From positions 558,001 through 622,000 of the forward strand of contig NZ_CP094974.1 of the NCBI RefSeq assembly GCF_022869805.1: a DNA stretch of 64,000 nucleotides, read 5' to 3'. Shown in pieces: positions 3,642-19,920 of this stretch. The stretch comes from Halosolutus halophilus (GTDB lineage: Archaea > Halobacteriota > Halobacteria > Halobacteriales > Natrialbaceae). Made by a program: the position numbers and the translations under genes. A model generated the notes under the pieces. The model had not been told where the DNA came from, did not search any database, and saw nothing but the letters and a program-made list of their open reading frames with translations. How positions within the stretch are numbered: position 1 is the stretch's first letter; every line of letters begins with the position of its first letter.

Positions 3642-3750
3642 AATGATCAGTGTGGCCCCCTCAGCGGTACGTCCAGGGAACGGAGTTACCGAAGCCATCT
3701 ATCCGATAGCTATCAAGAACAGCACGCTGACTACAGGGGATGTATTCATC
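3642..3750 (+). repeat. Palindromic cassette-border element, copy 1 (degenerate left arm)
   Basis: The right arm is clear: GCACGCTGACTACAGGGGAT at 3722-3741, followed by GTATTCATC. The interior carries GGAGTTACCGAAGCC and then ATCAAGAACAG, shared with copies at 6180, 8436 and 16586. The left arm (from 3642) is eroded. This is the leftmost copy seen. Confidence 0.6.
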
Positions 3751-3801
3751 AAGCGGGTATCGCCCATTCCAGCGGATTCAGAGCGAAGTAAATGTGCGAG
3801 T

Positions 3802-4098
3802 CTATCGGGCGTCTGCATTCCGTATCTGGAACCCGGTGCCCTGTCGCCGGATACCGAACATACCAGTCGCGACCGCGACGAGGACACAGCCTCCAACAAA
3901 TGTATTGAACAGCATGTTCTCGGGGAGGTACCCAGTAGCCATACTGAGTTCGATCGCCCCTGCTATCCACACGATTGCGAAGGCGAACGCGACGTAGTCA
4001 TACTCGCGTGCCGTGATATAGTGGCGAACGAACGCAACGGCGCCTACACCACTCATGAGCAACATCGGTCCAATCCAGATGAACGTAGTCTCCGCCAT
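3802..4098 (-). CDS. Small membrane protein, function unknown
   Basis: A 98-residue protein with three hydrophobic segments (about residues 7-22, 35-53 and 67-84) separated by short charged loops and ending in a basic, hydrophilic tail. I do not recognise a family. I chose the ATG giving MAETTFIWIG; a TTG seven codons upstream (4119) is a possible alternative. The gene lies between a copy of the palindromic border element (3642-3750) and a half copy (4131-4157) directly upstream of its start, so its promoter would be in or next to that repeat. No partner gene is present. Confidence 0.6.
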   Translation of the reverse strand: MAETTFIWIGPMLLMSGVGAVAFVRHYITAREYDYVAFAFAIVWIAGAIELSMATGYLPENMLFNTFVGGCVLVAVATGMFGIRRQGTGFQIRNADAR

Positions 4099-4130
4099 TC
4101 CGATGGCGAGAATATACAACTCCCTTACAT

Positions 4131-4157
4131 AATACAGGGCGCGAATGCAGCACGAAC
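4131..4157 (-). repeat. Solitary arm of the palindromic border element
   Basis: Read on the minus strand this is GTGCTGCATTCGCGCCCTGT followed by ATT, nearly the same as the left arm of the copy at 7574 (CTACATTCGCGCCCTGTATT). No matching second arm lies at the usual distance, so it is a half element directly upstream of the membrane-protein gene. Confidence 0.6.
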
Positions 4158-4342
4158 TGAGGTCTGTGATCGCTCACTACTGGCGCATATAGTCGATCGA
4201 GAATTCAGGGATAGTCATTCATTTTCCACTATCATCATGTTATGAAATCCTTCGCGAGTATCGTCGACGTATTATATGGACTACCGGAGTGCGAACGCGT
4301 GAGTCGGTCACAACCGCTGTAGGCCACTCAGAGAGATAAGGC

Positions 4343-6025
4343 ATGAGCAAAGAACCACACCACAAGACGGCGAAATCGGACTTCGAACCGCTGCGGGCAA
4401 CGCGCCGAACCGCGCTTCGCGAGGCGAGTACTCACCAGGGTACCCAGAATTCAGACAGGGCAACTGACGGAGTGCGCCTGTTCCGAACCCGAACGCTGAC
4501 GCGCCGCGAGGCGCTCCAGAGAGGGGGACTCGTCGTGGGCGGACTCTCACTCGGTGGATCCACGGTGACGCGGACAGTCGCCGCCGATCGAGAGTCCGAA
4601 GAGAGCCAGGACAGCGACACGGATAGCAGTCTGGCCTCGATCGCAGAAGACGCCTACCGCTACGGACTCCAGCAGGTTATCTTCTACGTGACGCGCTTCA
4701 ACTACACGCAGAAGGAAGACAGCGACTTCTTCGTGGGCGTCAATCGGTTGTACTATCCCAACGAGGGCCGACCGATAACGGCCGACTTCACGGCTGTCGT
4801 CAGTCCGAACGCCACCACCCTGTACGGGCAGGGTTTCCTCGACCTGCAGGACGAACCCGTCGTCATCGAGATGCCCGAAGTCACCGACCGCTACTTCTCG
4901 CTGGAGTTGATGGACCAGTACGGAATCTACCCTCTCTACGCCGGGAATCAGTTCACTGGCACCGATGCGCGCTCGTATCTAATCCTGCCGGACGACTACG
5001 AGGGCGAGATTCCAGGCGACTTCGCCGCGACCGACGTCGTCCAAGCAGGGACGAAGTCCCTGTTAACCGAACTCCGGTACGCGCTGCGCGACTCGACGGA
5101 CGAATCCGAAATCGCGTACATCAACGACCTGCAGGAGCAGACGACCATCACCCCGCTCAGCGAGTGGCTCGCCAACGACCGCTCGGGCGTGCCACGGGCG
5201 GAGCAGTCAGTCGTTGCCGGCGACTACGAGACGATCCCACGAATGGCGGACCTCACAGAGCAGCAGGTCGAAAACCAGACCCCATCGGACTTCTTCACCC
5301 TCCTCAGCCTCGTCCTGAACGACCCGAGCATGTCGCTCATCGACGACTCCCGAAAAGAGGCTGCGATGCTCGAGCGGTTGGAACGGGTCGGAATCGGCCC
5401 GGGACTGGAGTTCGAGTGGTCCGCGCTCGAGACCGACGTACAGGAGGCGCTGACCAGCGGGGTCAAGAACGGGTTCGAGCGCGTCAGAGCCGCCGCCTTG
5501 CAGGGCAACAGCGACGTTATGGTAGACATGAACGGCTGGAACGTCCTTCAGAACACGGCGGACTACAGAACCGACTGGCTGACCCGGGCCGTCATGGCCG
5601 ACATCGGCTTCGCGGGCCCCGACTCGCCCGCGTCTCACGTCGCTGGGTTCAAATTTACCGACGCGAGCGGCGACCCACTGGACGGGTCGAACCGGTACAC
5701 CATCACGTTCGACCTCGAGGACCTGCCGCCAGTCACCGAGTTCTGGGAGATCCCGATCTACGACGCGCAGGGTTACTTCGTCGAGAACGAACTCGACCGC
5801 TACAGCATCAACAGCTACATGCTCGAAGAAGGACTGTTGCACACCGAAGCCAACGAACTCGTCATCTACGTGCAACACGAGGAACCGGACGATCCCGAGC
5901 AGGCGACGAACTGGCTGCCAGCTCCTGAAGGGGGTATGCGCTTCGCAGCGCGGTTCTACGGCCCCCGTTGGTCGATTGTCGACGGGTCCTACGACATGCC
6001 CGAGGTCGTCCCTGCGGAGAAGTGA
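4343..6025 (+). CDS. Tat-exported DUF1254/DUF1214 protein
   Basis: A 560-residue secreted protein. A hydrophilic N-terminal stretch of about 50 residues precedes a Tat motif (LTRREALQRGG, twin Arg at 54-55) and a hydrophobic h-region ending near AADRESEE. The mature part has the DUF1254 layout (AEDAYRYGLQ... FNYTQ... TTLYGQGFLDL, then EMPEVTDRYFSLELMDQYG) and, in the last ~120 residues, the DUF1214 fold (RYTITFDLEDLPPVTEFWEI... NSYMLEEGL... ARFYGP). Proteins of this class are widespread and extracytoplasmic, but their biochemical role is not established. It is a single-gene unit bounded by palindromic elements. The long leader before the Arg pair is unusual; a later in-frame start is possible, though no internal Met occurs before the Tat motif. 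Confidence 0.88.
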   Translation: MSKEPHHKTAKSDFEPLRATRRTALREASTHQGTQNSDRATDGVRLFRTRTLTRREALQRGGLVVGGLSLGGSTVTRTVAADRESEESQDSDTDSSLASIAEDAYRYGLQQVIFYVTRFNYTQKEDSDFFVGVNRLYYPNEGRPITADFTAVVSPNATTLYGQGFLDLQDEPVVIEMPEVTDRYFSLELMDQYGIYPLYAGNQFTGTDARSYLILPDDYEGEIPGDFAATDVVQAGTKSLLTELRYALRDSTDESEIAYINDLQEQTTITPLSEWLANDRSGVPRAEQSVVAGDYETIPRMADLTEQQVENQTPSDFFTLLSLVLNDPSMSLIDDSRKEAAMLERLERVGIGPGLEFEWSALETDVQEALTSGVKNGFERVRAAALQGNSDVMVDMNGWNVLQNTADYRTDWLTRAVMADIGFAGPDSPASHVAGFKFTDASGDPLDGSNRYTITFDLEDLPPVTEFWEIPIYDAQGYFVENELDRYSINSYMLEEGLLHTEANELVIYVQHEEPDDPEQATNWLPAPEGGMRFAARFYGPRWSIVDGSYDMPEVVPAEK

Positions 6026-6060
6026 TAACTTCTAACTTCATCCCCAACCAGACAATTGCC

Positions 6061-6152
6061 TTGCGTTTTCTGTATCCAGTACGCCGTTTTTGACAGCGGT
6101 TCGGGAGTTCGGTCAGAGTCTGCCGAATAGAAGGCGCGAATGTGGTACGCAA
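6061..6152 (-). repeat. Palindromic border element, copy in inverted orientation
   Basis: Read on the minus strand: left arm GCGCCTTCTATTCGGCAG, interior CGAACTCCCGAACCGCTGTC and AAAAACGG, right arm CGTACTGGATACAG. This matches the interior of the copies at 6867 and 7574 and shows that this copy is flipped relative to most others. It lies directly after the DUF1254 gene and about 26 bases from the next copy. Confidence 0.7.
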
Positions 6153-6177
6153 TCTGGCTCGATTTGCGTAAGGGATG

Positions 6178-6270
6178 ATCGCTCAGTGTAGGGCAAGGAG
6201 TTACCGGAGCATCCATCGAGTCGTACAGAATCTGTCAAAAGTCGCCTGCTGAATATAGAGCATGAGTTCA
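6178..6270 (+). repeat. Palindromic border element
   Basis: Right arm CCTGCTGAATATAGAGCATG followed by AGTTCAGCAC; interior GGAGTTACCGGAGC and TCTGTCAAAAG. The left arm (CGCTCAGTGTAGGGCAAG) is diverged. It forms a back-to-back pair with the inverted copy at 6061-6152. Confidence 0.7.
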
Positions 6271-6334
6271 GCACAAACTCGTTGAAGTGTTTGAAAGGGG
6301 CGCTTGACCCTATCGCTCAGTTTCCGGGGTCTCA

Positions 6335-6790
6335 CTATTGACGAGAGCTATTTTCGCTCCCCCGTCGGACGAACGATCCAATAATGAACGCGATCGATCC
6401 CAGGGCAATCCCCTCTGTTGTATAGACGAACAGCCCCTCAGGGTCAAGAAAATATGCGAGTTGTTCCGGAAACGTTCTGTACGACAGGCCTGGGAACGCG
6501 TGGTAGGCACGGAATCCGAGCAACGACGTAAACGAGACTAGCCAGGCAACCAGTAGGCCACCCCGAACGTACCCGACCACGGCCGCCGCCCCGATCCCGA
6601 CGAGTGCTGCATCGCCGGGAATGAACACGACTCCGCCTGCGACCGTGAACACGTCGAGTACGTACGCCACGAACGTTATCACACCAAGGACGACAGCGAG
6701 AGTCGTCCAAAGGGCCCGCCAGTACCACGACTGATTGTGACCGAGCAGCACATGGCGAAACGAGAGTGACACGCCCACACCTACCCCCAC
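6335..6790 (-). CDS. Multi-pass membrane protein, function unknown
   Basis: A 151-residue protein with four predicted membrane helices (about residues 24-47, 52-72, 77-97 and 120-142), Gly/Val/Ala-rich, ending in a short basic-polar tail (RRGSENSSRQ). No family name can be given. Its helix pattern and C-terminal Gly-rich helix followed by Arg resemble, loosely, the larger membrane protein at 8596-9506 in the same array. It is alone between two palindromic elements and runs opposite to the genes on either side, so it must carry its own promoter. Confidence 0.65.
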   Translation of the reverse strand: MGVGVGVSLSFRHVLLGHNQSWYWRALWTTLAVVLGVITFVAYVLDVFTVAGGVVFIPGDAALVGIGAAAVVGYVRGGLLVAWLVSFTSLLGFRAYHAFPGLSYRTFPEQLAYFLDPEGLFVYTTEGIALGSIAFIIGSFVRRGSENSSRQ

Positions 6791-6866
6791 TGTCTGTATA
6801 ACAACTGGGAAAGTTCAAACAGATATTTAACCAAGATAAAGGGTGCTGGGCTTCCCACCAAGCTGG

Positions 6867-6955
6867 TCATGCGCTGTGTATTCAGCAAGATCTGGGCGAA
6901 CTCCCGGATCACTGTCAAGAACGGTGTGCTGAATACAGAGGATGAGTTCAGCACG
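6867..6955 (+). repeat. Palindromic border element (well-preserved reference copy)
   Basis: Left arm TCATGCGCTGTGTATTCAGC then A; interior GAACTCCCGGATCACTGTCA then AGAACGG; right arm GTGCTGAATACAGAGGATGA then GTTCAGCACG. The inner arms TGTATTCAGCA and TGCTGAATACA are perfect inverted repeats, and each arm also contains its own GCTGAA/TTCAGC mini-palindrome. Confidence 0.8.
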
Positions 6956-7074
6956 ACAACCACATTTGTTTCACGCCGAAGCCGATGAACCAGCCGTTCG
7001 ATAGATCTGCACATCTATCGCTCGCCATGCGTCGTTCGGTACTATTATTCCGTCGAGTCTCCACTCGAATAACA

Positions 7075-7518
7075 ATGCCCTCCAACTGCTCATCAGCCGC
7101 TCACCGAGACAAACGACCGTCACGGCGACGGTTTCTTGCTACTCTCGGGGCTGTAGCGTCAGTGTCGACTGCTGGCTGTAGTGACGTTCTGTCGGATAGT
7201 TGGTCCAGTAATACCGACGAACCCGGCGAGGTGAGTGTCGAGAACAGGACTTCTTCGAAGGCGGAGATAGCAGTTCGTGTCATAGACAGCGAGGATGAGA
7301 CCCTTTTCAGCCGTATTTTCACTCTCAGACCCGAAGAGATGACGTCACATGGCGCTATCGAAACAACCCCTTCGAGGGTGCATGCATTTACCGCAAATGG
7401 CGCTTCCCGTACGTGGCGGTATGCCCCCGATTTGCCGGCCGATTTCGACTGTGAACCAAAAGATATCGGGCTTACGCTGCACCAAGATAACACGATCGAA
7501 CCGTGGTACGACTGCTAA
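7075..7518 (+). CDS. Tat lipoprotein, function unknown
   Basis: A 147-residue protein with a Tat leader (RPSRRRFLATLGAVASVS) and lipobox STAGC, placing the lipid-anchored Cys at residue 35; the mature protein would sit on the outer face of the membrane. A Ser/Asp/Glu linker follows, then a compact beta-rich domain (VSVENRTSSKAEIAVRVIDS...). Short haloarchaeal lipoproteins of this shape are common and uncharacterised. The ATG at 7075 fits the leader; the frame is open upstream but that part is not leader-like. It is a single-gene unit between palindromic elements, and the smaller lipoprotein at 18643-19104 in the same array has the same design. Confidence 0.75.
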   Translation: MPSNCSSAAHRDKRPSRRRFLATLGAVASVSTAGCSDVLSDSWSSNTDEPGEVSVENRTSSKAEIAVRVIDSEDETLFSRIFTLRPEEMTSHGAIETTPSRVHAFTANGASRTWRYAPDLPADFDCEPKDIGLTLHQDNTIEPWYDC

Positions 7519-7573
7519 CTACAGACCCTGTACTGAGCACTCGAGCCGCCAAACTGAGTCGGCGTCAATCTAT

Positions 7574-7666
7574 GCTACATTCGCGCCCTGTATTCAGCAG
7601 CGTACATACGAGCTGCCGAACGCTTGTCAGAAAGGGCGTACTGAATACAGAGGCCGAGTTCAGCAC
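7574..7666 (+). repeat. Palindromic border element
   Basis: Left arm GCTACATTCGCGCCCTGTAT then TCAGCA; interior CGAGCTGCCGAACGCTTGTC then AGAAAGGG; right arm CGTACTGAATACAGAGGCCG then AGTTCAGCAC. This copy links the outer left arm form (TACATTCGCGCCC) with the inner TATTCAGCA word. Confidence 0.8.
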
Positions 7667-7774
7667 GATCCGATCTTTCGTTTCTCGACTCTGTCTCTAA
7701 ATCGGGAGTCAGAACTGTTCGCAATCGGGCTTGATCAGGTTTTCCAACCCGAATTGCCCCTGGGTGTCATACAC

Positions 7775-8122
7775 CTATTCGAGTTCAGTGGTAACGAACT
7801 GGTACAGTTTCTCGACGCGGTCGTTCGGATGATAGCGGACCGTTTCCGTTCGGTCATCGTACTCAACAAGGCCAGCGGCTTCCAGTTTCGGCAGTTTGGA
7901 ATGATGCAGATCGAGACGAAGTCGTCCGGTGTCTATCATTCCACCTGAGTCTGGGGGAGGATTCTCGGCTGCCACGTGTTCGAGGAGGTCGTCCACCGTA
8001 ACAGTATTACTCTCACTTTCGATTAACTGGCCGAGAACTGACCGACAGTGTTGACTGGCGACGATGTGCAATGCTGACTCGGTCGATACGGTATGAGTGA
8101 AGCTACTCATTGGTTTTCCCAT
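7775..8122 (-). CDS. DUF7344-type winged-helix protein, probable regulator
   Basis: A 115-residue protein with the pattern of the haloarchaeal DUF7344 domain: a first helix with HIVASQHCRSVLGQLIES, an acidic middle (VDDLLEHVAAENPPP), a Leu/His-rich recognition helix (RLRLDLHHSKLPKLEAAGLV) and a wing (EYDDRTETVRYHP). Such domains are winged helices thought to bind DNA; targets are unknown. The start could be the first ATG (MGKPMSS) or the second, four codons on. It stands alone between two palindromic elements and reads against the flanking genes. Confidence 0.8.
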   Translation of the reverse strand: MGKPMSSFTHTVSTESALHIVASQHCRSVLGQLIESESNTVTVDDLLEHVAAENPPPDSGGMIDTGRLRLDLHHSKLPKLEAAGLVEYDDRTETVRYHPNDRVEKLYQFVTTELE

Positions 8123-8435
8123 TCCGATTATGAAATGGCCGGGACACGGATCAACCCCCTAGTTCACCCACATCATCACGCCTCGGCTGTCGAGGAACCG
8201 CGTCGGAGGGAATCACCTACCATGCCCTTCGATAGTTGGTACTGGCATGTTCCAGCCGAGTTCCTTTCGGGACAACGACGGTCCATCTCCATGGCCCCAC
8301 TACAATCAGTTCCTGCACTTCATAACCAGACACGCCGATGGGGCCACCAGAGGCGACCTCACCGGGTCGCATTATTTTGGATTAGTGATATTGACGTAGC
8401 TGCTCTTGAGAGGATTATAGTTTCACCATCAGCGG
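8123..8435. other. Gene-free spacer upstream of a border element
   Basis: An open frame (8093-8488, plus) overlaps this spacer but is His/Arg/Ser-rich, starts inside the DUF7344 gene and has no recognisable domain, so I do not call it. The region should hold the promoter of the DUF7344 gene. Confidence 0.4.
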
Positions 8436-8526
8436 TAAGTACAGGTGAAGCAGGTAACGGAGCGACGACCGATTTATCCGGGAGATAGCAGAAACGGCGT
8501 GCTGAATACAGAGGATGAGGTCAACA
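8436..8526 (+). repeat. Palindromic border element
   Basis: Right arm GTGCTGAATACAGAGGATGA then GGTCAAC (outer part changed from GTTCAGC). Interior GGTAACGGAGCGACGACCG and AGCAGAAACGGC. The left arm (GTACAGGTGAAGCAGG) is diverged. Confidence 0.65.
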
Positions 8527-8595
8527 TCGCGGCTACTTGTGTATTTAATCCCACCCTTGACAAGTTATAAATGGCAAGACAGTGGCCGTAATACA

Positions 8596-9506
8596 ATGGC
8601 CTCCAATAACAATGATGCATTATTCGGACGACGGTCAGACCGAAGACGTTTCATCATCGGTATAGCGACCGCCCTTTTCGCCTGTATGTTTCTGACCGGG
8701 GCGTACGCCCGTGGACGATGGATGCAAGACGTCATGGGACCGCAGGTGTACCCCGTACTGTTCGTTCTTCTCGTCGGTGGCGGACTGGCAATCTGGAACG
8801 CCTATTGGAACGACGGATTGCTCCTAAGTTGGCTGTTGATCTTTAGCCTCGTCACGCCCTGGTTGCTCCATTTCAATCTTCAGTACGGTATTCTGGAGCC
8901 GTTCATATCGGCGGGGTACGTGACGCTGGCGCTCGTCGTCGGGACGGTCGGCCATCTGATCGGTGTCGGACTGCGGCGAGCGCTGGTCGGGGATACGGAC
9001 GGGGAGGCTTTCAAACGAGCGATGGGGGTACTCGGATCGGCCCCGGACGAGTCGATTCGATGGAGCCTCCTCTTGAGTGGTCTCTTCGTTGGTACAGCGG
9101 TACTGGTCTACGTGGCCGAACCGTATCGGAATCAATTGGTGTCGGTGGTGTATCCAGTCCTGTGGTTCTACCCGATCGGTGTCGTAACGTGGGAGACCGT
9201 GCTCGGGGTCGGATTCGTTCTTGGTTGGCTCGGGCTCGCAACGTGGCCCGCCTCACGTGGAAACGGAGTACTCATTAGCTGGGGAGTCATTTTTGCACCG
9301 ATATTCGGAACGATCCTTACGTACAGCCTATTGGAGGCGTTTTTACCCCCGATCTGGGTGGAACACTCGCGGACGACGTGATTGTCGCGCTACTCGTCGC
9401 CGTATCCACCGCCGTCATTCTGGGAACACTGGGATTCTTCGTCGGGAAGCTACTTCATCGTACAGGCGCCGTTCGACGACCCGATCGCGACGGGATGAGT
9501 ACGTAG
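8596..9506 (+). pseudogene. Multi-pass membrane protein with an apparent single-base frameshift near its end
   Basis: The first frame codes for 261 residues from an ATG giving MASNNNDALF: a basic start (RRSDRRRF), then six to seven hydrophobic helices. It stops after ...WVEHSRTT at 9381. In the next frame the sequence continues without a break as GVFTPDLGGTLADDVIVALL, another membrane helix, GKLLHRTG and a stop at 9504-9506. The join falls around 9330-9345 at a run of T and C, as expected for a one-base loss (natural or sequencing). The repaired protein would be about 302 residues. No family is recognised; it may be related to the protein at 6335-6790. It is the only gene between two palindromic elements. 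Confidence 0.6.
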
Positions 9507-9644
9507 GAACGGTCGTTCTGCATCAGTCGTTACGGTTGCACCTCAGTCAGCACACAACGTCTGAATCGGAATGAGTCGATGTTTCAGACGCTCCACCGAC
9601 GGCCCCCAGCTCCCGGTTCCATCGACCGCGAACTCGATCCGACC

Positions 9645-9734
9645 GATACGCGCCCTGTATCCAGCAAGAACTAATCGAACTACTGGATCACTGGTAAGAG
9701 CGGCGTGCTGAATACAGAGCATGAGTTCAGCAGA
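9645..9734 (+). repeat. Palindromic border element
   Basis: Left arm CGATACGCGCCCTGTATCCA then GCA; interior CGAACTACTGGATCACTGGT then AAGAGCGGC; right arm GTGCTGAATACAGAGCATGA then GTTCAGCAG. One mismatch (TATCCAGCA against TGCTGAATA) would be a G-U wobble in the minus-strand transcript. Confidence 0.75.
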
Positions 9735-9848
9735 GCGTTACCTACAGGCACACATCCATCAATAGTGACAGAGAGCATCAGATATTTTCGGTCACTAAAC
9801 CGTCGATCAGGGATCATCTATTCTGCAGTCCCGCTCTTCTGAGGTCTC

Positions 9849-10757
9849 TTACCGCCTCATATCGAGAATGAGTTCGGCACACGTTTCCGGATGGCCCAAC
9901 CAGGGGAGGTGTCCGGCATTCACCGTCTCAAGACGACTGTCCGGAATTCGGTCGACGGTATTGCGCACAACGTCTGGCCCTCCGAGTGGATCGTTCTCGC
10001 CCCAGGCCACGAGGGTCGAGGGTTGCAGGTCAGCCAACTCATCTTCGCGCAGCCGCGTTGAGGGATGCCACCCACGAAGCCTGAGCAATGAATTAAACTC
10101 GCTGATATCGACAATATCTGACCGAGGCTTCCGAGCCTGGGTCACGAACACCCGTATCAACGATGGATAATCCTGAATCGTTTCATCCTCACCGAATATT
10201 TCGAATTGTTCAACGACACCATCCTCGCTCGATTCCTGGAGCCGAGCCAACAGTCGGTTGAGCAAGGGCACTGAAAACAACCGAAGCGGAATCGGCGGGC
10301 GGGTTCCCGGGAAGGTTGGGACGCTTCCAATCAGCGTCAGGTGACGGACTCGATTGGGCCGAGCCAACGCGAACACCATGCTCCAGTACCCCCCTGCGGA
10401 ATTACCGACGAGGTCTACCTGTTCTATCCCCAACCTGTCGAGAATTCCTTCAAGAACGGTAACAGCCGTTTGTCGAAAAGTTTGGGCGGTGTAGGTATGG
10501 TCGCCACTGAGTCCGTAGCCAGGACGGTCTGTAGCAATGGTCCATGTGTCGTCAAGATGAGCGATCAACGGGGTAAACAGTGCCCCGAACGCTCCAGTTC
10601 CATGGACGCAGAAGACAGGCACATCGTCGCTCCCCTCATCACCAGTTTCGATAACATGAGTTCTGACCTGTGGATGGTCGAGATCTATAAATTGTGATTG
10701 TGGATCGACGCTCATTTCCTCAAACAGTTGATCTTGGGCTGTCTCGAAACTCGCCAT
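9849..10757 (-). CDS. Alpha/beta-fold hydrolase
   Basis: A 302-residue cytoplasmic hydrolase with the full catalytic set: HGTGAFG near 52-58 (oxyanion strand), DRPGYGLSG near 77-85, nucleophile elbow GNSAGG with Ser120, acid Asp256 in WGENDPLGG and His283 in NAGHLPWLG. The cap region (residues ~145-225) is helical. The fold covers esterases, dienelactone or epoxide hydrolases and meta-cleavage product hydrolases; the substrate cannot be read from the sequence. The start is an ATG giving MASFETAQDQ. It is the only gene between the elements at 9645-9734 and 10842-10936. Confidence 0.88.
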   Translation of the reverse strand: MASFETAQDQLFEEMSVDPQSQFIDLDHPQVRTHVIETGDEGSDDVPVFCVHGTGAFGALFTPLIAHLDDTWTIATDRPGYGLSGDHTYTAQTFRQTAVTVLEGILDRLGIEQVDLVGNSAGGYWSMVFALARPNRVRHLTLIGSVPTFPGTRPPIPLRLFSVPLLNRLLARLQESSEDGVVEQFEIFGEDETIQDYPSLIRVFVTQARKPRSDIVDISEFNSLLRLRGWHPSTRLREDELADLQPSTLVAWGENDPLGGPDVVRNTVDRIPDSRLETVNAGHLPWLGHPETCAELILDMRR

Positions 10758-10841
10758 GTGTTACCACCACTCATTCTCGTATAGGGTACTGTAGTATTAA
10801 ATATGAGGAAGCCGGATTTCGATCATCTTTCTGGTCCGTGT

Positions 10842-10936
10842 CTGCTGAATGCGCGCCTTGTATTCAGCAGATGTCGACCGAATTGCCGTGATGCTGTCAC
10901 AAACGGCCTGCCGGAGATAGAAAATACGTGCAGCAT
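10842..10936 (+). repeat. Palindromic border element
   Basis: Left arm CTGCTGAATGCGCGCCTTGT then ATTCAGCAG, in which the GCTGAAT/ATTCAGC mini-palindrome is perfect. Interior CCGAATTGCCGTGATGCTGT then CACAAACGGC. The right arm (CTGCCGGAGATAGAAAATAC, GTGCAGCAT) is diverged. Confidence 0.7.
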
Positions 10937-11095
10937 AAGGTCTTTGTCCCTTTTATGTGCAATTATCGATTATTCAATTATGTGTCTGTAACTCGGTACT
11001 ACAGGCTGTTTGTCCTGATTGACTGAAATTCTTGATCACGATATGTCTTCTATTTAGTGCGTTGAAAATATGAAAAATACTTACCAGTTCGATTG

Positions 11096-11453
11096 ATGCG
11101 ATCACTTCTGCCCTCCAGGCGGAGCATCCTCGCAAGTGCTGGTGTCGCCAGTATCGCCGTCCTCGCCCCAACCGTCGAATCACTGGTGGCACTGGACCTC
11201 GACAGCGGCACAGAACAGTGGCGCCACAGCGTCGGCCAGCAACCCTGGCCGATCGCGCCGGTCGTCCACGACGGTATCGTCTACGCTCTCGGGTGGCGCC
11301 GGGATTGGACCCCTTCGGACCGGAGGCAAGCGGTGGCAGTACGACGTCGAAGGTACCGTCGTGGAGGGCGTGGCCGTCGCCGATGGCGCCGTCTTTGCTG
11401 TCACGTCCGACCCGGAGGGGCCGTCAAACGTCTACGCACTGGACCCCGCCTGA
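11096..11453 (+). pseudogene. Decayed PQQ-type beta-propeller protein
   Basis: A leader (MRSLLPSRRSILASAGVASI) is joined directly to propeller-blade sequence (SLVALDLDSGTEQWRHSVGQ, then APVVHDGIVYAL), the typical PQQ-like repeat motif. After VYAL the frame breaks; the next frame continues as GGAGIGPLRTGGKRWQYDVE and ends with PSNVYALDPA and a stop. The whole remnant encodes about 119 residues, whereas haloarchaeal Tat-secreted PQQ-repeat proteins usually exceed 350. Most blades are therefore missing, and the signal peptide and blade fragment were joined by an internal deletion. It is alone between palindromic elements. Confidence 0.7.
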
Positions 11454-11490
11454 GGTCGCGGGGAATCGGTTCGCCGCATCCGTGTCTGAT

Positions 11491-11591
11491 CTGCTCTCCA
11501 AGAGACGCGCCTTCTAGTCAGCAAGGGGTGACCAACTCACCGAGATGGTGTCAGAAGCAGCGTGCTGACTACAGAGGGTGAATGCAGCACG
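11491..11591 (+). repeat. Palindromic border element with covarying arms
   Basis: Left arm GACGCGCCTTCTAGTCAGCA, interior CCAACTCACCGAGATGGTGT then CAGAAGCAGC, right arm GTGCTGACTACAGAGGGTGA then ATGCAGCAC. Both arms carry the same change: TAGTCAGCA on the left and TGCTGACTA on the right, against TATTCAGCA/TGCTGAATA elsewhere, so pairing is kept. Confidence 0.75.
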
Positions 11592-15123: not shown

Positions 15124-15436
15124 TCGCACCGACCGGGAGCCGACCCGGCAGCCGACGGCGCGATCGGAACCCCAGTCCAGGGCCTGGCGACGAGTGTGCC
15201 CGCCGCGAGCAGTCCGGCGCTCGCCGTCCTCCGTCCCGGACCGTCTCGATCGCACACCGGCTCACCGACGTGAGCGGGGCGGTGGGGGACGAGCGGCTGC
15301 GGTCGTCCCTCCCGTCGAGTCCAGTCCCGGAGTGGGCGAGGGGTGCCGGCCACGCGATGGCTGGGGCTCACGACCGACGGGATGGAAATTCGAGAGAGAA
15401 CAGGAGACGCACTGCTCGCGCTACGACCGGCCGGCG
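15124..15436. other. Intergenic, nothing recognised
   Basis: About 310 bases of GC-rich sequence between glmS and a convergent small gene. No T-rich terminator, repeat or small zinc-finger frame was found. Confidence 0.45.
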
Positions 15437-15565
15437 TTACGACCCGACGACGATCCGCTCGTGCTCTTCGATCGCCTCGATCGCGGCGTCGACTTCTGAC
15501 TGAGTCGCCTCCGAGAGTTCCGGCTCGCACTCCGCTTCGTCCGCGTGTCGTTCGTTCTCGGTCAT
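15437..15565 (-). CDS. Tiny acidic protein, function unknown
   Basis: A 42-residue frame, MTENERHADEAECEPE... ending EEHERIVVGS, very rich in Glu and Asp, with a probable amphipathic helix in the second half (QSEVDAAIEAIEEHERI). No domain is recognised. The acidic composition is what haloarchaeal real genes look like, and an AT-rich stretch lies just upstream on its coding strand, but such a short frame could also be chance. Confidence 0.45.
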   Translation of the reverse strand: MTENERHADEAECEPELSEATQSEVDAAIEAIEEHERIVVGS

Positions 15566-15740
15566 CACCAGTCGCGTACTCGTTTTCCGATCCGAGACAT
15601 ATGTTTTGTGGGAAACACTAACTCGATCGCGAGTACCGACCCACGACGTGTTCGCCCACCTCGGCGACGCGGTATCGTGCGCGGGGAGACCGACGGTGGG
15701 GCCGCCCGGATCGAGCGCTGGTGTCGCTGGCGCGACCGGG

Positions 15741-15941
15741 CTACGGCGTCTCGGGGGCCGTCGCCGGTAGACAGGCGTCGCTGCAGTAGTGGTACGCGTA
15801 CACGTCCGCGCCGTCGCGGATCCGCCACGTGAGCCGTCGTTCGCGGGCGCCGATCCGGGCGCCACAGGCGTGACAGGTGGCCGCCTGCTGCACTCGGCGG
15901 TGGCTTGAGGGCCGTTCCGGTTCGCTGTACTCGTACTCCAT
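15741..15941 (-). CDS. Small zinc-finger protein (treble-clef-like)
   Basis: A 66-residue protein with two Cys pairs: CHACGARIG at residues ~23-31 and YCSDACL at ~52-58, separated by a beta-rich stretch (RRLTWRIRDGADVYAYHY). This CxxC...CxxxC pattern with an Arg/Trp-rich hairpin is typical of the many small haloarchaeal zinc-finger proteins, some of which act as regulators; no function can be assigned here. The first ~20 residues (YEYSEPERPSSHRR) look disordered. A second tiny zinc-finger gene is at 16325-16462. Confidence 0.7.
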   Translation of the reverse strand: MEYEYSEPERPSSHRRVQQAATCHACGARIGARERRLTWRIRDGADVYAYHYCSDACLPATAPETP

Positions 15942-16324
15942 AGGCGGGCTACGTCGCCCCTCTACAAGTAAGAAGGGATGAATTTCAGCACAGGATACTT
16001 GATCGGCCGCCCGTCAGTGGCTGCTCGCGACGGCAGTCCCGCAGCGGGCCGTCCATCGGCCAGCACGCGAGCTCCCACCATCGCTGCGGCTCGTTGCGAG
16101 AACTGCGTGGAGTTACTGTCGGCCGGAACCGCTCAGGATGCGGTCGGGCGCTCCGCATCGCGTGCGTGCCGACGAGGGCGCTGGTCGTGAGCGGTGGGAT
16201 TCGTCGTCCCAGCCTTCGTTTCGAATGGAACACATAAGTGAAAAGCAATTAAATTAATTGTACTATCATGATGCTTTACGAAAAGATAATATCATTCCCG
16301 GCGGGATACTGAGCGGAAGGGAAG
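15942..16324. other. Intergenic with AT-rich promoter-like patch
   Basis: No gene recognised. An AT-rich stretch (16229-16290, including AAGCAATTAAATTAATTG) stands out against GC-rich surroundings and probably provides the promoter of the 45-residue zinc-finger gene that follows. Confidence 0.4.
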
Positions 16325-16462
16325 ATGAGTACCCACTCCGCTCCGTCCACCATTTGTAGCGTGTGTCAACGGCCGATCGGCGGTCACGAATCCCAGTATC
16401 GCGGCGAACCAGCCCACCCTGACTGTCGGGCTCGCCTCCTCGCGACCGAGTCGCCGCGGTGA
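16325..16462 (+). CDS. Tiny one-zinc protein (45 residues)
   Basis: An ATG at 16325 opens a 45-codon frame: MSTHSAPSTI, CSVCQRPIGGHESQYRGEPA, HPDC and RARLLATESPR. CxxC at residues 11-14 and HxxC at 35-38 form one complete zinc site of the LIM/A20-like half type. The composition, the zinc-site geometry and the AT-rich upstream region argue for a real gene. Haloarchaea carry many such proteins under 70 residues; roles are mostly unknown. Confidence 0.6.
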   Translation: MSTHSAPSTICSVCQRPIGGHESQYRGEPAHPDCRARLLATESPR

Positions 16463-16585
16463 GCGCACGCCCACGTTATGGCAGACGCCGTCCAAGTTGC
16501 GACGCCGGGCCGGGTCGCGGCCCGGATTTGCAACTCCCGGCTAACTGGCCCTGTGAACCCCTTTGTCGTTGAGAGGTACTCACCG

Positions 16586-16674
16586 GTCGTGTTCTGTACA
16601 GGCGAACCAGTTAGCGGAGCGCCCATCAACCTAGTTGTTAGCGGTCGAGTGCGGCGTTCTGAATACCGAGACTA
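16586..16674 (+). repeat. Palindromic border element (degenerate)
   Basis: Left arm GGTCGTGTTCTGTACAGGCG then AAC; interior CAGTTAGCGGAGCGCCCATC; right arm GCGGCGTTCTGAATACCGAG then ACTAG. The interior matches the copy at 6178 (GGAGTTACCGGAGCATCCAT). Confidence 0.5.
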
Positions 16675-16902
16675 GATCTATCAAAATAGCCTTCTCGCTC
16701 GAAACTGCGTGTGCTCGCGTTCTGTGGCTATTTCGGCGAGGGAGAGCCAACAGACGGTCGGACCGACTGTTAGCAGTCTACTGACTCGGCCCACTCCGCG
16801 ACGGGTTCCCTCTCGGAAAAGACGATCGTCCCGCCGTCTCGTTCGGCGAACGTGGTCGGAACTGGACGGCCACCTCGTCGGTGATCGGTGCTACCTCACC
16901 GA

Positions 16903-17673
16903 TCACTCCTTCCGCGCAACGAGCGAGACGCTCTTCACCCCGTACGTCGAACACGCGTTCGCCGCCTGCTCGGAGACAAATTCGTAGTCGGTATTCTCGC
17001 TGACCGCTACGACGTCGAACCCAGCCGCGTCGACCAGGTCGGTGTAGCGATCGACCTGCTCGGCTCCGCCGATGCAAGCTGCCCAGAGGTCCGCATCGGT
17101 CTTGATACTCTCGGGCATCTGCTCTTCGCTGATAATGTCGGAAATGGCGAGTCGGCCCCCTGGCCGCAGCACCCGGAACGCCTCCTCGAAGACGCGATCC
17201 TTCTCGGCAGAGAGGTTGATGACCCCGTTCGATATCACCGCGTCGAACGACCCGTCCTCGAACGGGAGGGTCTCGATGTACCCGTGGCGGAAGTCGACGT
17301 TGTGGAAGCCGTTGTCCGCTGCGAGGTCACGCGCCTTCTCGATCTGCTCTCCGGTCATGTCGATACCCGTAACCGTTCCCGTCTCGGTGACGTGCAAACC
17401 GGCGACGAAGGCGTCCATCCCCGACCCGCTGCCGAGGTCAAGCACGTCTTCGCCCGGGTCGAGTTCCGCCAGATCGAAGTAGTAGCCGACACCCGCGAAC
17501 GAGTCGATAGCCGCGTCCGGAACGTACTCGAGATCCTCGGGGTCGTAGCCGAGGCGTTCGGCGAGGTCGCGGCCCGTCTCGAAGTGGAATTCGGCGTCGG
17601 ATGACTCCGCGACGTCACGGTACATCGACTTGACTTCGCGTTCGAGTTTGTCCGTGTCGAGTGAGTGATTCAT
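16903..17673 (-). CDS. SAM-dependent methyltransferase, ArsM-like
   Basis: A 256-residue class I methyltransferase. Motif I is VLDLGSGSGMDAF (77-89), followed by GIDMTGEQIEKARDLA (motif II region), FRHGYIETLPFEDGSFD and ISNGVINLSAEKDRVFEE, close to the arsenite methyltransferase branch. Two Cys at positions suited to ArsM As(III) binding are visible (Cys200 in AACIGG, Cys241 in NACSTYG), but the N-terminal Cys cluster of classical ArsM is absent (GVGYYFDLAEL occupies that place). It may therefore methylate another thiophilic or organic substrate. Its ATG is 14 bases after the stop of the OsmC-family gene on the same strand, so the two are probably co-transcribed. Confidence 0.85.
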   Translation of the reverse strand: MNHSLDTDKLEREVKSMYRDVAESSDAEFHFETGRDLAERLGYDPEDLEYVPDAAIDSFAGVGYYFDLAELDPGEDVLDLGSGSGMDAFVAGLHVTETGTVTGIDMTGEQIEKARDLAADNGFHNVDFRHGYIETLPFEDGSFDAVISNGVINLSAEKDRVFEEAFRVLRPGGRLAISDIISEEQMPESIKTDADLWAACIGGAEQVDRYTDLVDAAGFDVVAVSENTDYEFVSEQAANACSTYGVKSVSLVARKE

Positions 17674-17686
17674 CGGTGCTCACCGG

Positions 17687-18292
17687 TTAGTCGTCGCCCG
17701 CCACCTGGGCGGGGGTATTGATGGTCATCTCGACATCCTGTCCGAGCGAGACGAGCGTGTAGACGGGTGCTCGCCGTGCCCACTCGTCGATCAGGTCTTC
17801 GTCGAGGTTCTCACCTTCGATTTCGATTTCGGCGGTGACGTTCTCGAAGACCGCGTCGGCGTCGTTGAGATCCGCGAGGCTAAAGAGCACGGCGGGATCG
17901 AAATCGGACCAGACGCGTGTCTGGAGGTGGTCGATATCCACGCCGTGTGCGACGGCATTGATGCTGATGCCGACGTTAATGCAGGCAGCCAGCGCGGAGA
18001 GCGCGGCTTCGATCGGTTCTATCCGATCGGTCGCACCGACCCAGCCACCGGCTTCCAGCACTTCCCTCCACCCGCCGTAGGGAACCGTGTATTCGCGGGT
18101 CTCGCGGGCGATCGTTTCGCCACCGAGTTCGTAGCTATCGATCCTCGCCAGACTGTGGGCACACGTCCCCTCGTAGGTCGCGGATGCCCCGAGACCGAGT
18201 TGGACTTCTTCGGGATGTTCTGCCGCGTGGTCGGCGAACGCTTCGAGTGTTTCGAGTTCTACACCGTGTGTGATTCGCTGATCATCGGTCAT
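17687..18292 (-). CDS. OsmC family protein
   Basis: A 201-residue OsmC/Ohr-fold protein. Recognisable parts are GLGASATYEGTCAHSLARI (32-50), the VGATDRIEPIEAALSALAAC helix ending at Cys104, and the C-terminal beta strand ending VEMTINTP. OsmC and Ohr proteins reduce organic hydroperoxides with two Cys; here the candidates are Cys44 and Cys104, and spacing differs from classical Ohr, so peroxidase activity is uncertain. The start is the ATG giving MTDDQRITHG; the frame is open 13 codons further. It precedes the ArsM-like methyltransferase with a 13-base gap, suggesting an operon for thiol or metalloid stress. Confidence 0.88.
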   Translation of the reverse strand: MTDDQRITHGVELETLEAFADHAAEHPEEVQLGLGASATYEGTCAHSLARIDSYELGGETIARETREYTVPYGGWREVLEAGGWVGATDRIEPIEAALSALAACINVGISINAVAHGVDIDHLQTRVWSDFDPAVLFSLADLNDADAVFENVTAEIEIEGENLDEDLIDEWARRAPVYTLVSLGQDVEMTINTPAQVAGDD

Positions 18293-18486
18293 GGTTTTGT
18301 GTCGCCTTTCGGCTAAACACAGTACGATCACGGAGATAATGTAGCTACTCCGTGGGGTTTTGGCAGTTACTGCCAGCTATGCAGCCACTGACCGAGAGTC
18401 ACCAGGTGCTACCGGGAACCGGCTGAGATATCGATTGTCCAACTGGCCGCCAGCCGACAGGAAACCGTTGAGGGACGGACCCGATC

Positions 18487-18562
18487 AGCCCGTTCGGGCT
18501 CTGTTGAAATTCTCACTGGTCGATACAAATGGCGTGCTGAATACAGAGGATGAATGCGGCAC
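18487..18562 (+). repeat. Palindromic border element (truncated left arm)
   Basis: The right arm is intact: GGCGTGCTGAATACAGAGGA then TGAATGCGGCACG. The left side is CGGGCTCTGTTGAAATTCTC and the spacing between arms is shorter than in other copies. The left side also resembles the end of an IS6-type element, so the copy may have been altered by an insertion. Confidence 0.6.
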
Positions 18563-18642
18563 GTCGCTTCAGTTCGATCGAACTGACCGCTCCGACGTCA
18601 TCTGACCGGAAGATATATGTCAGTCTGTACGCGTGTTGCCTC

Positions 18643-19104
18643 ATGTCCTCCATCTCACGCCGGAAAGTACTGCGATCAGGAGGTGTCTCCGTCACGATGG
18701 GACTGGCCGGTTGTACGTCGATTCTACGTACCTTTCAGGACGACCCCCGCTTGGTCGAACTCGGAGCCTTCAACTTCGACCCGGAAGAGCACGTGGTTTA
18801 CGTGTTATTGATAAAAGAGGGCGAGCCGGTGTATTGGGAGAGACTGGCGCTCGGTCCCTACGATTCCGACGCAGATTCTGATGGGGGAGCGTTCGACGGC
18901 TATCCGACCGAGTCGGGACCCTACGTACTCTATGTGTGGCGGGACGATCAAGCGCGAACGGACTGGCAGCGGCTCGATTTCCGCGAATACGACACGTCCT
19001 GTCTCGGGGTTACCGTTATGATCGGTGACCCATTTGCAGACCGCGGCGAGATCCATGTACACCATCATTCCGATTGCCGCGTCGGGAGCGAAACTGATAC
19101 CTGA
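18643..19104 (+). CDS. Small Tat lipoprotein, function unknown
   Basis: A 153-residue protein: Tat motif ISRRKVL, hydrophobic stretch RSGGVSVTMGLAGC with lipid-anchored Cys24, then a single compact domain (LVELGAFNFDPEEHVVYVLL, ... GPYVLYVWRDDQARTDWQRL...). The mature part is rich in Asp, Tyr and Trp and looks beta-stranded; I do not recognise a family, but its design matches the lipoprotein at 7075-7518. The ATG at 18643 gives a proper leader; the open frame upstream overlaps the palindromic element and is not leader-like. It is alone between two elements. Confidence 0.75.
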   Translation: MSSISRRKVLRSGGVSVTMGLAGCTSILRTFQDDPRLVELGAFNFDPEEHVVYVLLIKEGEPVYWERLALGPYDSDADSDGGAFDGYPTESGPYVLYVWRDDQARTDWQRLDFREYDTSCLGVTVMIGDPFADRGEIHVHHHSDCRVGSETDT

Positions 19105-19150
19105 CTAGTCGACGCCGAGCGCTCGCTACCCGCACTGATCAGGGAGTACC

Positions 19151-19248
19151 GTGTGCCATATTCGCGCTTTGTATCTCGCACGCTTCGCTCGACCTATCCA
19201 GCAGTTAGCAGAATGGGCGTGCAAGATACAGAGGGTGTATGCAGCAGC
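19151..19248 (+). repeat. Palindromic border element with covarying arms
   Basis: Left arm GTGTGCCATATTCGCGCTTT then GTATCTCGCA; interior CAGCAGTTAGCAGAATGGG; right arm CGTGCAAGATACAGAGGGTG then TATGCAGCAG. The inner words TATCTCGCA and TGCAAGATA pair except for one G-U-type position, while both differ from the usual TATTCAGCA/TGCTGAATA. Confidence 0.7.
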
Positions 19249-19383
19249 GTACCAACCTATCATGACGGACAACGCGGTGGTTTGCTGTTCCGAGTGTGTA
19301 GACACTCCATGGTCCAGACGTAGGTTGCCAATCAGGATGCTACGCGCAGCTATTTAGGGGTAGATAGCCTTCTTAAGTCAAGG

Positions 19384-19854
19384 ATGATCTTGAAAGAGAC
19401 CACAACCGTTGAGGCGCTTCAAAAAGACGTCTATCGATTTTTCGAGGAGATGGAAGAGAACTATGAGCCATGGCACCCTGATCACATCACGTTCCGCTGG
19501 ACAGAGGGGGATGGGTTGGAACAGGGCGCTGAGGCCTATTTCGAGGAACGTATTGCGGGAAAGTTACAGAAGAAGACGGTAAAGTTCGTAAAGGTAACTC
19601 CCGATCGATACATTGAGTTCAAGCCGACATCACTGCTGGTTGGGCTGCTTATGCCTCAAATCAGTTTCGCGATCGATACTCACTCGGACGGTTGCGAACT
19701 CACCCAGCAAATCAAAGTACGAACCGGACCGATCGGTGCTTGGCTCAACAAGAGAGAATTTGACGCCGTTCGGACGCACATGCGAGAAGAAGGCGAGAAT
19801 TTGAAACGCATACTCGAAAATGAGGATCGAGTCCCCTCAGGAAAGAAAGCGTAG
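19384..19854 (+). CDS. SRPBCC (START-like) domain protein
   Basis: A 156-residue protein with the Bet v 1/START-like layout: N-terminal strand and helix (VEALQKDVYRFFEEMEENYE), a curved sheet (HITFRWTEGDG... AYFEERIAGKLQKKTVKFV... YIEFKP... GCELTQQIKVRTGP) and a long C-terminal helix (REFDAVRTHMREEGENLKRI). Such proteins bind lipids or other hydrophobic ligands or act as cyclases/dehydratases; no catalytic signature is obvious. The start is an ATG just after an AT-rich stretch (CTATTTAGGGGTAGATAG). It is the only gene between two border elements. Confidence 0.75.
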   Translation: MILKETTTVEALQKDVYRFFEEMEENYEPWHPDHITFRWTEGDGLEQGAEAYFEERIAGKLQKKTVKFVKVTPDRYIEFKPTSLLVGLLMPQISFAIDTHSDGCELTQQIKVRTGPIGAWLNKREFDAVRTHMREEGENLKRILENEDRVPSGKKA

Positions 19855-19890
19855 GTGATGAGTCAAAGAGGGTTCTTTCAGTTCTGGTTT

Positions 19891-19920
19891 TGCTGTATGT
19901 GCGCGTTCTATTCAGCACGG
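19891..19920 (+). repeat. Solitary left arm of the palindromic border element
   Basis: TGCTGTATGTGCGCGTTCTA then TTCAGCACGG matches the left arm of the copies at 10842 and 11491. No right arm follows within 150 bases. This is the last copy seen, so it marks the right end of the element-rich stretch. Confidence 0.6.

What the first reader, a model, noticed from the sequence alone, without database searches (positions are those of the whole stretch)
3642..19920. Array of single, unrelated genes separated by ~90-bp palindromic elements: a cassette-like system
Seen: at least eleven two-armed copies and two solitary arms of one element between 3.6 and 19.9 kb and none outside. Each has a left arm ending TGTATTCAGCA, an interior with GTCA-n-AA-n-GG, and a right arm TGCTGAATACAGAG..GAGTTCAGCAC. 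Between consecutive copies lies usually exactly one gene: membrane protein, DUF1254 protein, membrane protein, lipoprotein, DUF7344 protein, membrane protein, hydrolase, PQQ remnant, later lipoprotein and SRPBCC protein. Genes face both ways while most elements share one orientation. Known: integrons hold single-gene cassettes separated by imperfect palindromes (attC). Inference: this may be an archaeal cassette-shuffling system or a MITE family that mobilises adjacent genes.
Basis: partly seen in the sequence, partly recalled or inferred. Interest (0 to 1): 0.88.

Follow-up and report, generated by a model that had tools for sequence, protein, structure and literature searches.

The report
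A gene-cassette system in haloarchaea
Salt-loving archaea carry hundreds of single genes packaged between short palindromic DNA sites, together with a tiny recombinase gene packaged the same way, which looks like an archaeal counterpart of the integrons and dif modules that let bacteria shuffle and trade genes.

Summary
The unit is a 27-bp imperfect palindrome ("arm") with one strong half (S, TGCTGAATACAGAG) and one weak half (W). In the window, 19 arms lie at 3.7-19.9 kb, several paired exactly 66 bp apart. About 280 lie in clusters of the host genome, against 1 in 300 kb of background. The arms are confined to Halobacteria (chromosomes and plasmids). Of 279 arms, 1 lies inside a gene.

Three results indicate site-specific recombination. 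(1) Paired elements are three-block mosaics that switch exactly at the two arm centres. (2) Whole modules recur, at other loci and in other genera or families, with both ends at arms (1,615 bp at 90% identity in Halegenticoccus). (3) A 230-aa tyrosine recombinase is itself an arm-bounded module: 21 of 31 close homologues have an arm on both sides, always with S halves facing the gene, against 0 of 6 distant homologues.

Best reading: a mobile gene-cassette system. S-modules (recombinase, or a 66-bp miniature) alternate with W-modules (usually one accessory gene). It works like integrons and bacterial dif modules but fails integron membership and is not shown to be a dif-module member. Recombination was not tested experimentally, and the host's own recombinase copy carries a stop codon.

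The parts
3725..3751 (+). solitary arm, orientation S|W (strong half left)
   Evidence: profile score 26.0; half typing
3802..4119 (-). gene of module 3752-4125: 105-aa membrane protein
   Evidence: ORF and coding model; no Pfam/NCBIfam match
4126..4152 (+). solitary arm S|W
   Evidence: score 23.6
4343..6025 (+). gene of module 4153-6120: DUF1254/DUF1214 protein
   Evidence: Pfam PF06863, PF06742
6121..6147 (+). arm S|W, 126 bp before the next arm (size of the gene-less W mini-module)
   Evidence: score 20.9
6247..6273 (+). arm S|W
   Evidence: score 33.9
6335..6790 (-). gene of module 6274-6860: 151-aa membrane protein
   Evidence: 50% identical homologue in Salinigranum without adjacent arms
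6861..6953 (+). two-armed element (S-core): arms 6861-6887 (W|S) and 6927-6953 (S|W) around a 39-nt spacer
   Evidence: 66-bp spacing; ssDNA fold z -5.3
6985..7518 (+). gene of module 6954-7512: 177-aa lipoprotein-like protein; its last codons reach the next arm
   Evidence: ORF list
7513..7539 (.). arm typed S|S (rare type), 60 bp before the next arm
   Evidence: score 25.5; one of 4 S|S arms in the set
7573..7665 (+). two-armed element (S-core): arms 7573-7599 (W|S) and 7639-7665 (S|W)
   Evidence: ssDNA fold z -3.05
7775..8122 (-). gene of module 7666-8499: DUF7344 protein
   Evidence: Pfam PF24035
8500..8526 (+). solitary arm S|W preceded by an alternative left end
   Evidence: score 26.6
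8686..9381 (+). gene of module 8527-9639: membrane protein
   Evidence: no plasmid homologue
9640..9732 (+). two-armed element (S-core): arms 9640-9666 and 9706-9732
9849..10757 (-). gene of module 9733-10842: alpha/beta hydrolase
   Evidence: Pfam PF00561; 54% homologue lies between arms in Natrinema gelatinilyticum
10843..10935 (+). two-armed element with degenerate right arm (10909-10935)
   Evidence: left arm 30.5; right-half profile hit at 10894-10935 scoring 19.9
   Evidence: broken ORFs; not scanned against families
11497..11589 (+). two-armed element with degenerate left arm (11497-11523); right arm 11563-11589 (S|W)
16657..16683 (+). weak solitary arm S|W
   Evidence: score 14.0, near threshold
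18535..18561 (+). solitary arm S|W
   Evidence: score 32.7
18751..19104 (+). gene of module 18562-19153: lipoprotein-like protein (start may be 18550)
19154..19246 (+). two-armed element (S-core) with variant halves TGTATCTCGCA / TGCAAGATACA
   Evidence: compensating half-sites
19384..19854 (+). gene of module 19247-19890: SRPBCC-like protein
   Evidence: PF10604 just below cut-off; 74% homologue in a single-gene arm-bounded module in Haladaptatus halobius
19891..19917 (.). arm W|S closing the second part of the array
   Evidence: score 20.5

Best explanation
The elements are recombination sites of a mobile gene-cassette system of haloarchaea. Each 27-bp arm joins one strong half-site (S) to one weak half-site (W), and strand exchange takes place in the centre of the arm. 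Arrays are built from two kinds of module that alternate. S-modules have S halves at both inner ends; they are either a ~0.8-kb module coding for a small tyrosine recombinase, or a 66-bp gene-less miniature of it (the '90-bp element' is this miniature plus its two outer W halves). W-modules have W halves at both inner ends and mostly carry one accessory gene. Inferred: the small recombinase acts on arms in trans; recombination between direct-repeat arms excises a circle of 'core + gene', which can reinsert at any arm; recombination between inverted arms inverts or exchanges single modules. Shown: site architecture, mosaic breakpoints at arm centres, shared whole modules, and the recombinase embedded between arms. 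Not shown: catalysis, circles, or current activity in this host.
For: (a) Site logic: 241 of 251 confidently typed arms in the host are S|W or W|S. This holds for solitary arms (123 against 9 S|S or W|W) and for arms of other species, less strictly (227 against 36). (b) Exchange points: over 70 paired elements, similarity of the left flank goes with the outer left half (r=.43, permutation p=.001), the inner left half with the inner right half across the spacer (r=.43, p=.001) and the outer right half with the right flank (r=.45, p=.001). Correlation across either arm centre is zero (p=.54 and .94), also without IS-bearing copies. The same pattern appears in 14 pairs from other genera. (c) Six modules lie at two distant loci of the host with both ends at arms in both copies. 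36 of 260 homology ends (hits >=250 bp) are at arms in both copies against 0.2% expected, though alignment into the arms themselves inflates this. Between genera: 1,615 bp at 90.4% with Halegenticoccus soli ending at arms on both sides in both genomes; 84-93% modules shared with Natronococcus and Natrialba. The window's SRPBCC gene is a single-gene arm-bounded module in Haladaptatus and arm-free in three other plasmids. (d) Recombinase: homologues >=66% identical in 31 loci; 21 have arms on both sides at 31-103 bp, all in the order W|S-gene-S|W; 7 have one; 3 none; 0 of 6 homologues <=54% identical have any. Catalytic R67, K126, R186, W209, Y218 invariant in 19 sequences; PF00589 58 bits. In several genomes it sits between gene modules in place of a core. 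(e) The ends of the recombinase modules closest to the query (>=83% identical) resemble the core spacer, mostly above the 95th percentile of background. (f) 1 of 279 arms lies in a gene against 57% expected.
Against: No recombination, circle or binding was observed; everything is comparative sequence. The host has only one copy of the recombinase, with an internal TAG, although it has the most arms seen. Recombinase presence does not track arm number across genomes. Alternation of solitary arms is weak (41 of 69 neighbours alternate), so many arrays are eroded or fused. Other recombinases could act: a 344-aa Xer-like one is in all 50 good genomes, and another XerA-like operon lies next to arms in 7 of 31 loci checked. 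Genes per segment exceed the control only modestly (61% single-gene against 48%). The centre looks like 5 bp (or 7 bp with 10-bp halves), which is not settled.
Confidence: 0.74

Rival explanations
1. A tyrosine-recombinase transposon and its miniature derivative. The recombinase element (S...S) and its 66-bp MITE insert into W|W targets; genes between insertions are ordinary bystanders, and shared modules arose by homologous recombination between the many copies.
For: Core ends resemble the recombinase-module ends. Element outside-in order W|S...S|W is what insertion of S...S into W|W would give. Some W|W and S|S sites exist.
Against: Outer W halves form conserved families linked to 45-bp flanks, not random targets. 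Breakpoints sit at arm centres rather than along the 93-bp homology. Over half of the elements are single arms (109 of 196). Modules shared across families end at arms at both sides.
Confidence: 0.15
2. A dif-module-like system run by a host Xer recombinase (the universal 344-aa protein or the XerA-like operon), with the small recombinase only a frequent passenger.
For: Same alternation logic as C and D modules (PMC13141974). Arms have 11+5+11 geometry. The 344-aa recombinase is in 50 of 50 good genomes. Seven XerA-like operons lie beside arms, all facing the S half.
Against: No arm near the 344-aa gene. Arms are absent by pattern in 17 of 61 genomes that mostly have the enzyme. The small recombinase is fixed between two arms at 31-103 bp far more often (21 of 31) than the XerA-like one.
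Confidence: 0.08
3. True integron: attC sites and IntI.
For: Arrays of single genes, palindromic sites foldable as single strands, covariation of the inner halves.
Against: GTTRRRY is found in 1 and RYYYAAC in 2 of 70 elements. The recombinase scores 20.6 against a cut-off of 265 for integron integrase. Genes point both ways. The recombinase is itself a cassette.
Confidence: 0.01
4. Functional intergenic repeats (transcription terminators, nucleoid or regulator sites) with no role in recombination.
For: Almost strictly intergenic, palindromic.
Against: Clustered, not genome-wide (1 in 300 kb outside); mosaic blocks and shared modules; recombinase linkage.
Confidence: 0.02

Closest known systems
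dif modules of Acinetobacter plasmids (XerC/XerD, pdif sites; PMC13141974)
   Same: Short sites with two distinguishable half-sites; inversely oriented sites around each module; two module kinds that must alternate; mostly single or few accessory genes; an IS that inserts at the sites in one orientation (IS1202 family, PMC10132070; here an IS5-family IS in the left-arm centre).
   Different: Haloarchaeal; unrelated site sequence; a gene-less 66-bp module as standard connector; a dedicated small recombinase carried as a module instead of host XerC/XerD; hundreds of sites in one chromosome; no chromosomal dif of this sequence found.
Integrons (bacterial, and archaeal ones in PMC9668308)
   Same: Arrays of single-gene cassettes separated by palindromic sites that can fold as single strands; a tyrosine recombinase; excisable unit would be site plus gene.
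   Different: No attC core motifs, no IntI, no attI platform, genes on both strands, two half-site classes with strict S|W pairing, recombinase inside a cassette. The published archaeal integron survey text does not mention haloarchaea.
MITEs with an autonomous parent
   Same: The 66-bp core looks like an internally deleted recombinase module.
   Different: Exchange occurs at both arm centres and whole gene modules move.
Archaeal tyrosine recombinases with a lone Phage_integrase domain (HSTV2-like and others, PMC8371274)
   Same: Only PF00589 is recognised, no N-terminal SAM-like domain.
   Different: I could not place the 230-aa protein in a named family of that review; its arm-bounded setting is not described there.

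Membership tests
Integron | attC core sites GTTRRRY / RYYYAAC | tested here: not met
   1 and 2 of 70 elements
Integron | IntI-type integrase | tested here: not met
   TIGR02249 20.6 bits against cut-off 265
Integron | Cassette genes in one orientation relative to the sites | tested here: not met
   single-gene modules between > and <: 34 minus, 30 plus
Integron | Site folds as single-stranded hairpin with covarying halves | tested here: inconclusive
   inner halves covary (z 6.4), outer halves do not; fold z -1.3 to -5.3 for five strands of four elements
dif modules | ~28-bp site of two different half-sites and short spacer | tested here: met
   27 bp, 11+5+11, S|W in 241 of 251 typed arms
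dif modules | Modules bounded by inversely oriented sites, two kinds alternating | tested here: inconclusive
   strict for paired elements and recombinase modules; solitary neighbours alternate in 41 of 69
dif modules | Sites related to the host chromosomal dif and used by XerC/XerD | not tested
   haloarchaeal dif unknown to me; no arm near the universal Xer-like gene
dif modules | Recombination between sites demonstrated | not testable with these tools
   needs wet-lab assay
MITE | Terminal inverted repeats and an autonomous parent with the same ends | tested here: met
   strong half-sites at both ends; ends shared with the closest recombinase modules
MITE | Target-site duplication and empty sites | tested here: inconclusive
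   6 W|W sites found in the host set; no matched empty locus compared
Tyrosine recombinase | Catalytic R-K-H-R-(H/W)-Y | tested here: met
   R67, K126, R186, W209, Y218 invariant in 19 sequences; H183 not invariant; PF00589 58 bits

The most novel reading that the evidence does not exclude
A third, independent kind of mobile gene-cassette system, native to haloarchaea: strictly bipartite (S|W) sites, alternation of connector and cargo modules, and a minimal catalytic-domain recombinase that travels as one of its own cassettes, trading single accessory genes across families of Halobacteria.
Probability: 0.5. Interest if true: 0.93.

Novelty: new variant of a known kind. Interest (0 to 1): 0.87.

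Why it matters
Haloarchaea are known for massive gene exchange and low-GC islands of unexplained genes, but no cassette system was found described for them in the papers searched. If true, one site family and one small recombinase would account for many single-gene insertions across the class, give a simple search signature for mobile genes, and provide a natural comparison for how integrons and dif modules arose. The recombinase is about 230 residues and the sites 27 bp, so the idea is directly testable in Haloferax volcanii.

Tried and rejected
Rfam: no match.

First recombinase candidate, the XerA-like gene at the end of the host array 3.705-3.713 Mb: present in only 9 of 61 relatives and beside arms in 7 of 31 loci checked, so kept only as a possible alternative. 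Its relatives share an upstream GGCCTCGGCACTC motif of unknown meaning.

Universal 344-aa Xer-like gene: no arm nearby.

Arms with half replaced by CTTGTTTAGACGC looked like alternative half-sites but are ends of an IS5-family IS inserted in arms.

Correlation of recombinase presence with arm number: weak.

Viral collections: no arm and no recombinase.

Synteny of the window's flanking gene in ten relatives: only 41-50% identical homologues, so no empty-site comparison was attempted.

A structure prediction was not run because its input rule excludes the loci that carry intact copies.
Full report
WHAT IS THERE. The window is bases 558001-622000 of a single 5.06-Mb contig of a haloarchaeon. The window has 19 such arms between 3725 and 19917 and none further right. 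The exact word TGCTGAATACAGAG with up to 3 mismatches occurs 19 times against 1.5 in shuffles. In about 797 kb fetched around the genome's clusters there are 300 arms scoring above 12, against 1-12 with column-shuffled profiles. 70 neighbouring pairs are exactly 66 bp apart, and no other spacing exceeds 4. In 300 kb taken elsewhere in the genome there is one arm. Of 279 arms one lies inside a gene; 57% of nearby random positions do. Modules between arms average 53.7% GC against 64.9% in the background sample.

SITE ANATOMY. In a pair, the two halves facing the conserved 39-nt spacer are the strong type (S, TGCTGAATACAGAG); the outer halves are weak (W; left TGCCACATTCGCG, right read inward TGCTGAATTCATC). 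Typing each half of each arm gives 241 S|W or W|S against 4 S|S and 6 W|W. Typing was trained on the pairs, but it holds for solitary arms (123 against 9) and, less strictly, for arms of other species (227 against 36). Inner halves covary as complements across the spacer (TGTATTCAGCA with TGCTGAATACA; TGTATCTTGCA with TGCAAGATACA): z 6.4, 0 of 2000 shuffles. Outer halves do not.

THE ELEMENTS ARE MOSAICS. I measured whether two elements that are similar in one block are also similar in the next. Left flank goes with outer left half (r .43); inner left half, spacer and inner right half go together (.17-.43); outer right half goes with right flank (.45). Across the two arm centres the correlation is zero (-.01 and -.11; permutation p .54 and .94). 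Removing copies with IS ends changes nothing. Fourteen pairs from other genera give the same picture and the same 66-bp spacing. Exchange therefore happens at arm centres, and outer parts are combined freely with inner parts. This is what site-specific recombination at the arms predicts; homologous recombination would place breakpoints along the whole element.

MODULES MOVE AS UNITS. Six modules occur at two distant places of the host genome with both ends at arms in both copies. Between organisms, 1,615 bp (core plus gene) are 90.4% identical with Halegenticoccus soli and end at arms on both sides in both genomes. Further modules of 0.7-1.0 kb are 85-93% identical with Natronococcus and Natrialba, with ends at or near arms. 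For the window itself, the SRPBCC gene (19384-19854) is also a single-gene module between arms in a Haladaptatus halobius plasmid (74% aa identity), while homologues in Haloferax larsenii, Haladaptatus caseinilyticus and Natrinema salinisoli have no arms. DNA similarity there covers the gene only, so the gene may have been captured more than once. The hydrolase (9849-10757) lies between arms, with a second gene, in Natrinema gelatinilyticum.

THE RECOMBINASE. A module in the host (3706252-3707101, outside the window) contains a small tyrosine-recombinase gene with one internal stop. Intact homologues of about 230-250 aa occur across Halobacteriales. Of 31 loci with at least 66% identity, 21 have an arm on both sides at 31-103 bp, every time in the order W|S-gene-S|W; 7 have one arm; 3 have none. 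Six homologues with 54% identity or less have none. Maps of 14 such regions show arrays in which 'W|S recombinase S|W' takes the place of a core between gene modules. The protein has only the catalytic domain recognised (PF00589, 58 bits), with R67, K126, R186, W209 and Y218 invariant, plus an invariant CxCxxC (C94, C96, C99). Copies from different families of the order are up to 91% identical, whereas the universal 344-aa Xer-like protein is about 60% identical between families; this points to horizontal transfer. In the copies closest to the query, the ends of the recombinase module resemble the core spacer, mostly above the 95th percentile of background, so the 66-bp core is probably its miniature.

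MODEL. Shown: bipartite sites, exchange at arm centres, modules shared as units, and a recombinase embedded between sites. Inferred: the small recombinase cuts arms; S-modules (recombinase or core) act as connectors so that gene-carrying W-modules can be stacked; direct-repeat arms release 'core plus gene' circles that insert at other arms; inverted arms allow inversion or replacement. Fused or eroded arms explain why solitary arms alternate only weakly (41 of 69).

DISTRIBUTION. Pattern hits occur in 44 of 61 relatives with no hit in the backward control. All 38 stretches found in a collection of 84,980 species are from Halobacteria. 56 haloarchaeal plasmids carry elements. Viral and phage collections had none. 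The host is by far the richest genome seen.

COMPARISON WITH KNOWN SYSTEMS. Bacterial dif modules have C and D modules that must alternate, bounded by inversely oriented pdif sites (PMC13141974), and are hunted by IS of the IS1202 family (PMC10132070). The present system has the same logic and its own site-hunting IS (IS5 family, six copies in arm centres, ~9-bp duplications). Site sequences and enzyme differ, and a link to a chromosomal dif is not shown. Integrons share the single-gene arrays, but attC motifs, IntI and one-way gene orientation were tested and not met. The review of archaeal tyrosine recombinases (PMC8371274) contains no mention of cassettes, and the archaeal integron paper's text does not mention haloarchaea. 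My literature search covers open-licence papers only.

LIMITS. No experiment; the arm profile was trained on the host genome; gene calls come from a simple coding model; the genome was sampled, not read whole; the window's own region has no matched empty site in a close relative.

Noticed in passing
Host genome G000: 847.0, 872.7, 884.6, 1096.3, 1920.5 and 3710.0 kb: Six copies of an IS5-family insertion sequence (transposase NF033579 208 bits) sit in the centre of left arms, in one orientation relative to the arm, with ~9-bp duplications such as CGCGCCTTC: a site-hunting IS comparable to those at bacterial pdif sites.
   Followed up: yes
G000 3713835-3715240 and loci L221-L226: A two-gene operon (156-aa coiled-coil protein plus XerA-like recombinase) lies next to arms in seven genomes, each time with the strong half-site facing the operon.
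   Followed up: partly
Upstream of those operons, loci L121-L217: A conserved GGCCTCGGCACTC motif, sometimes repeated or inverted at the far side: a possible attachment or control site.
   Followed up: no
G000 1632593-1633624: A single-copy 344-aa Xer-like recombinase is present in all 50 good-quality relatives; its chromosomal site is unknown.
   Followed up: partly
Window 6121-6273 and host loci such as 3011597-3011724: A gene-less ~126-bp W-module recurs; its parts (CCTGTACTGAGCGATC... and ...CTGTTCAGTAGATC) also flank many gene modules, sometimes inverted before solitary arms. Function unknown.
   Followed up: no
Small recombinase residues C94, C96, C99 (reference L258): An invariant CxCxxC inside the catalytic domain suggests a metal-binding insertion unusual for tyrosine recombinases.
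   Followed up: no
G000 1254555-1255037: An 840-aa frame joins a tyrosine-recombinase domain to what looks like PAS/GAF and HTH regulator parts, like the fam30-04 type in PMC8371274.
   Followed up: no
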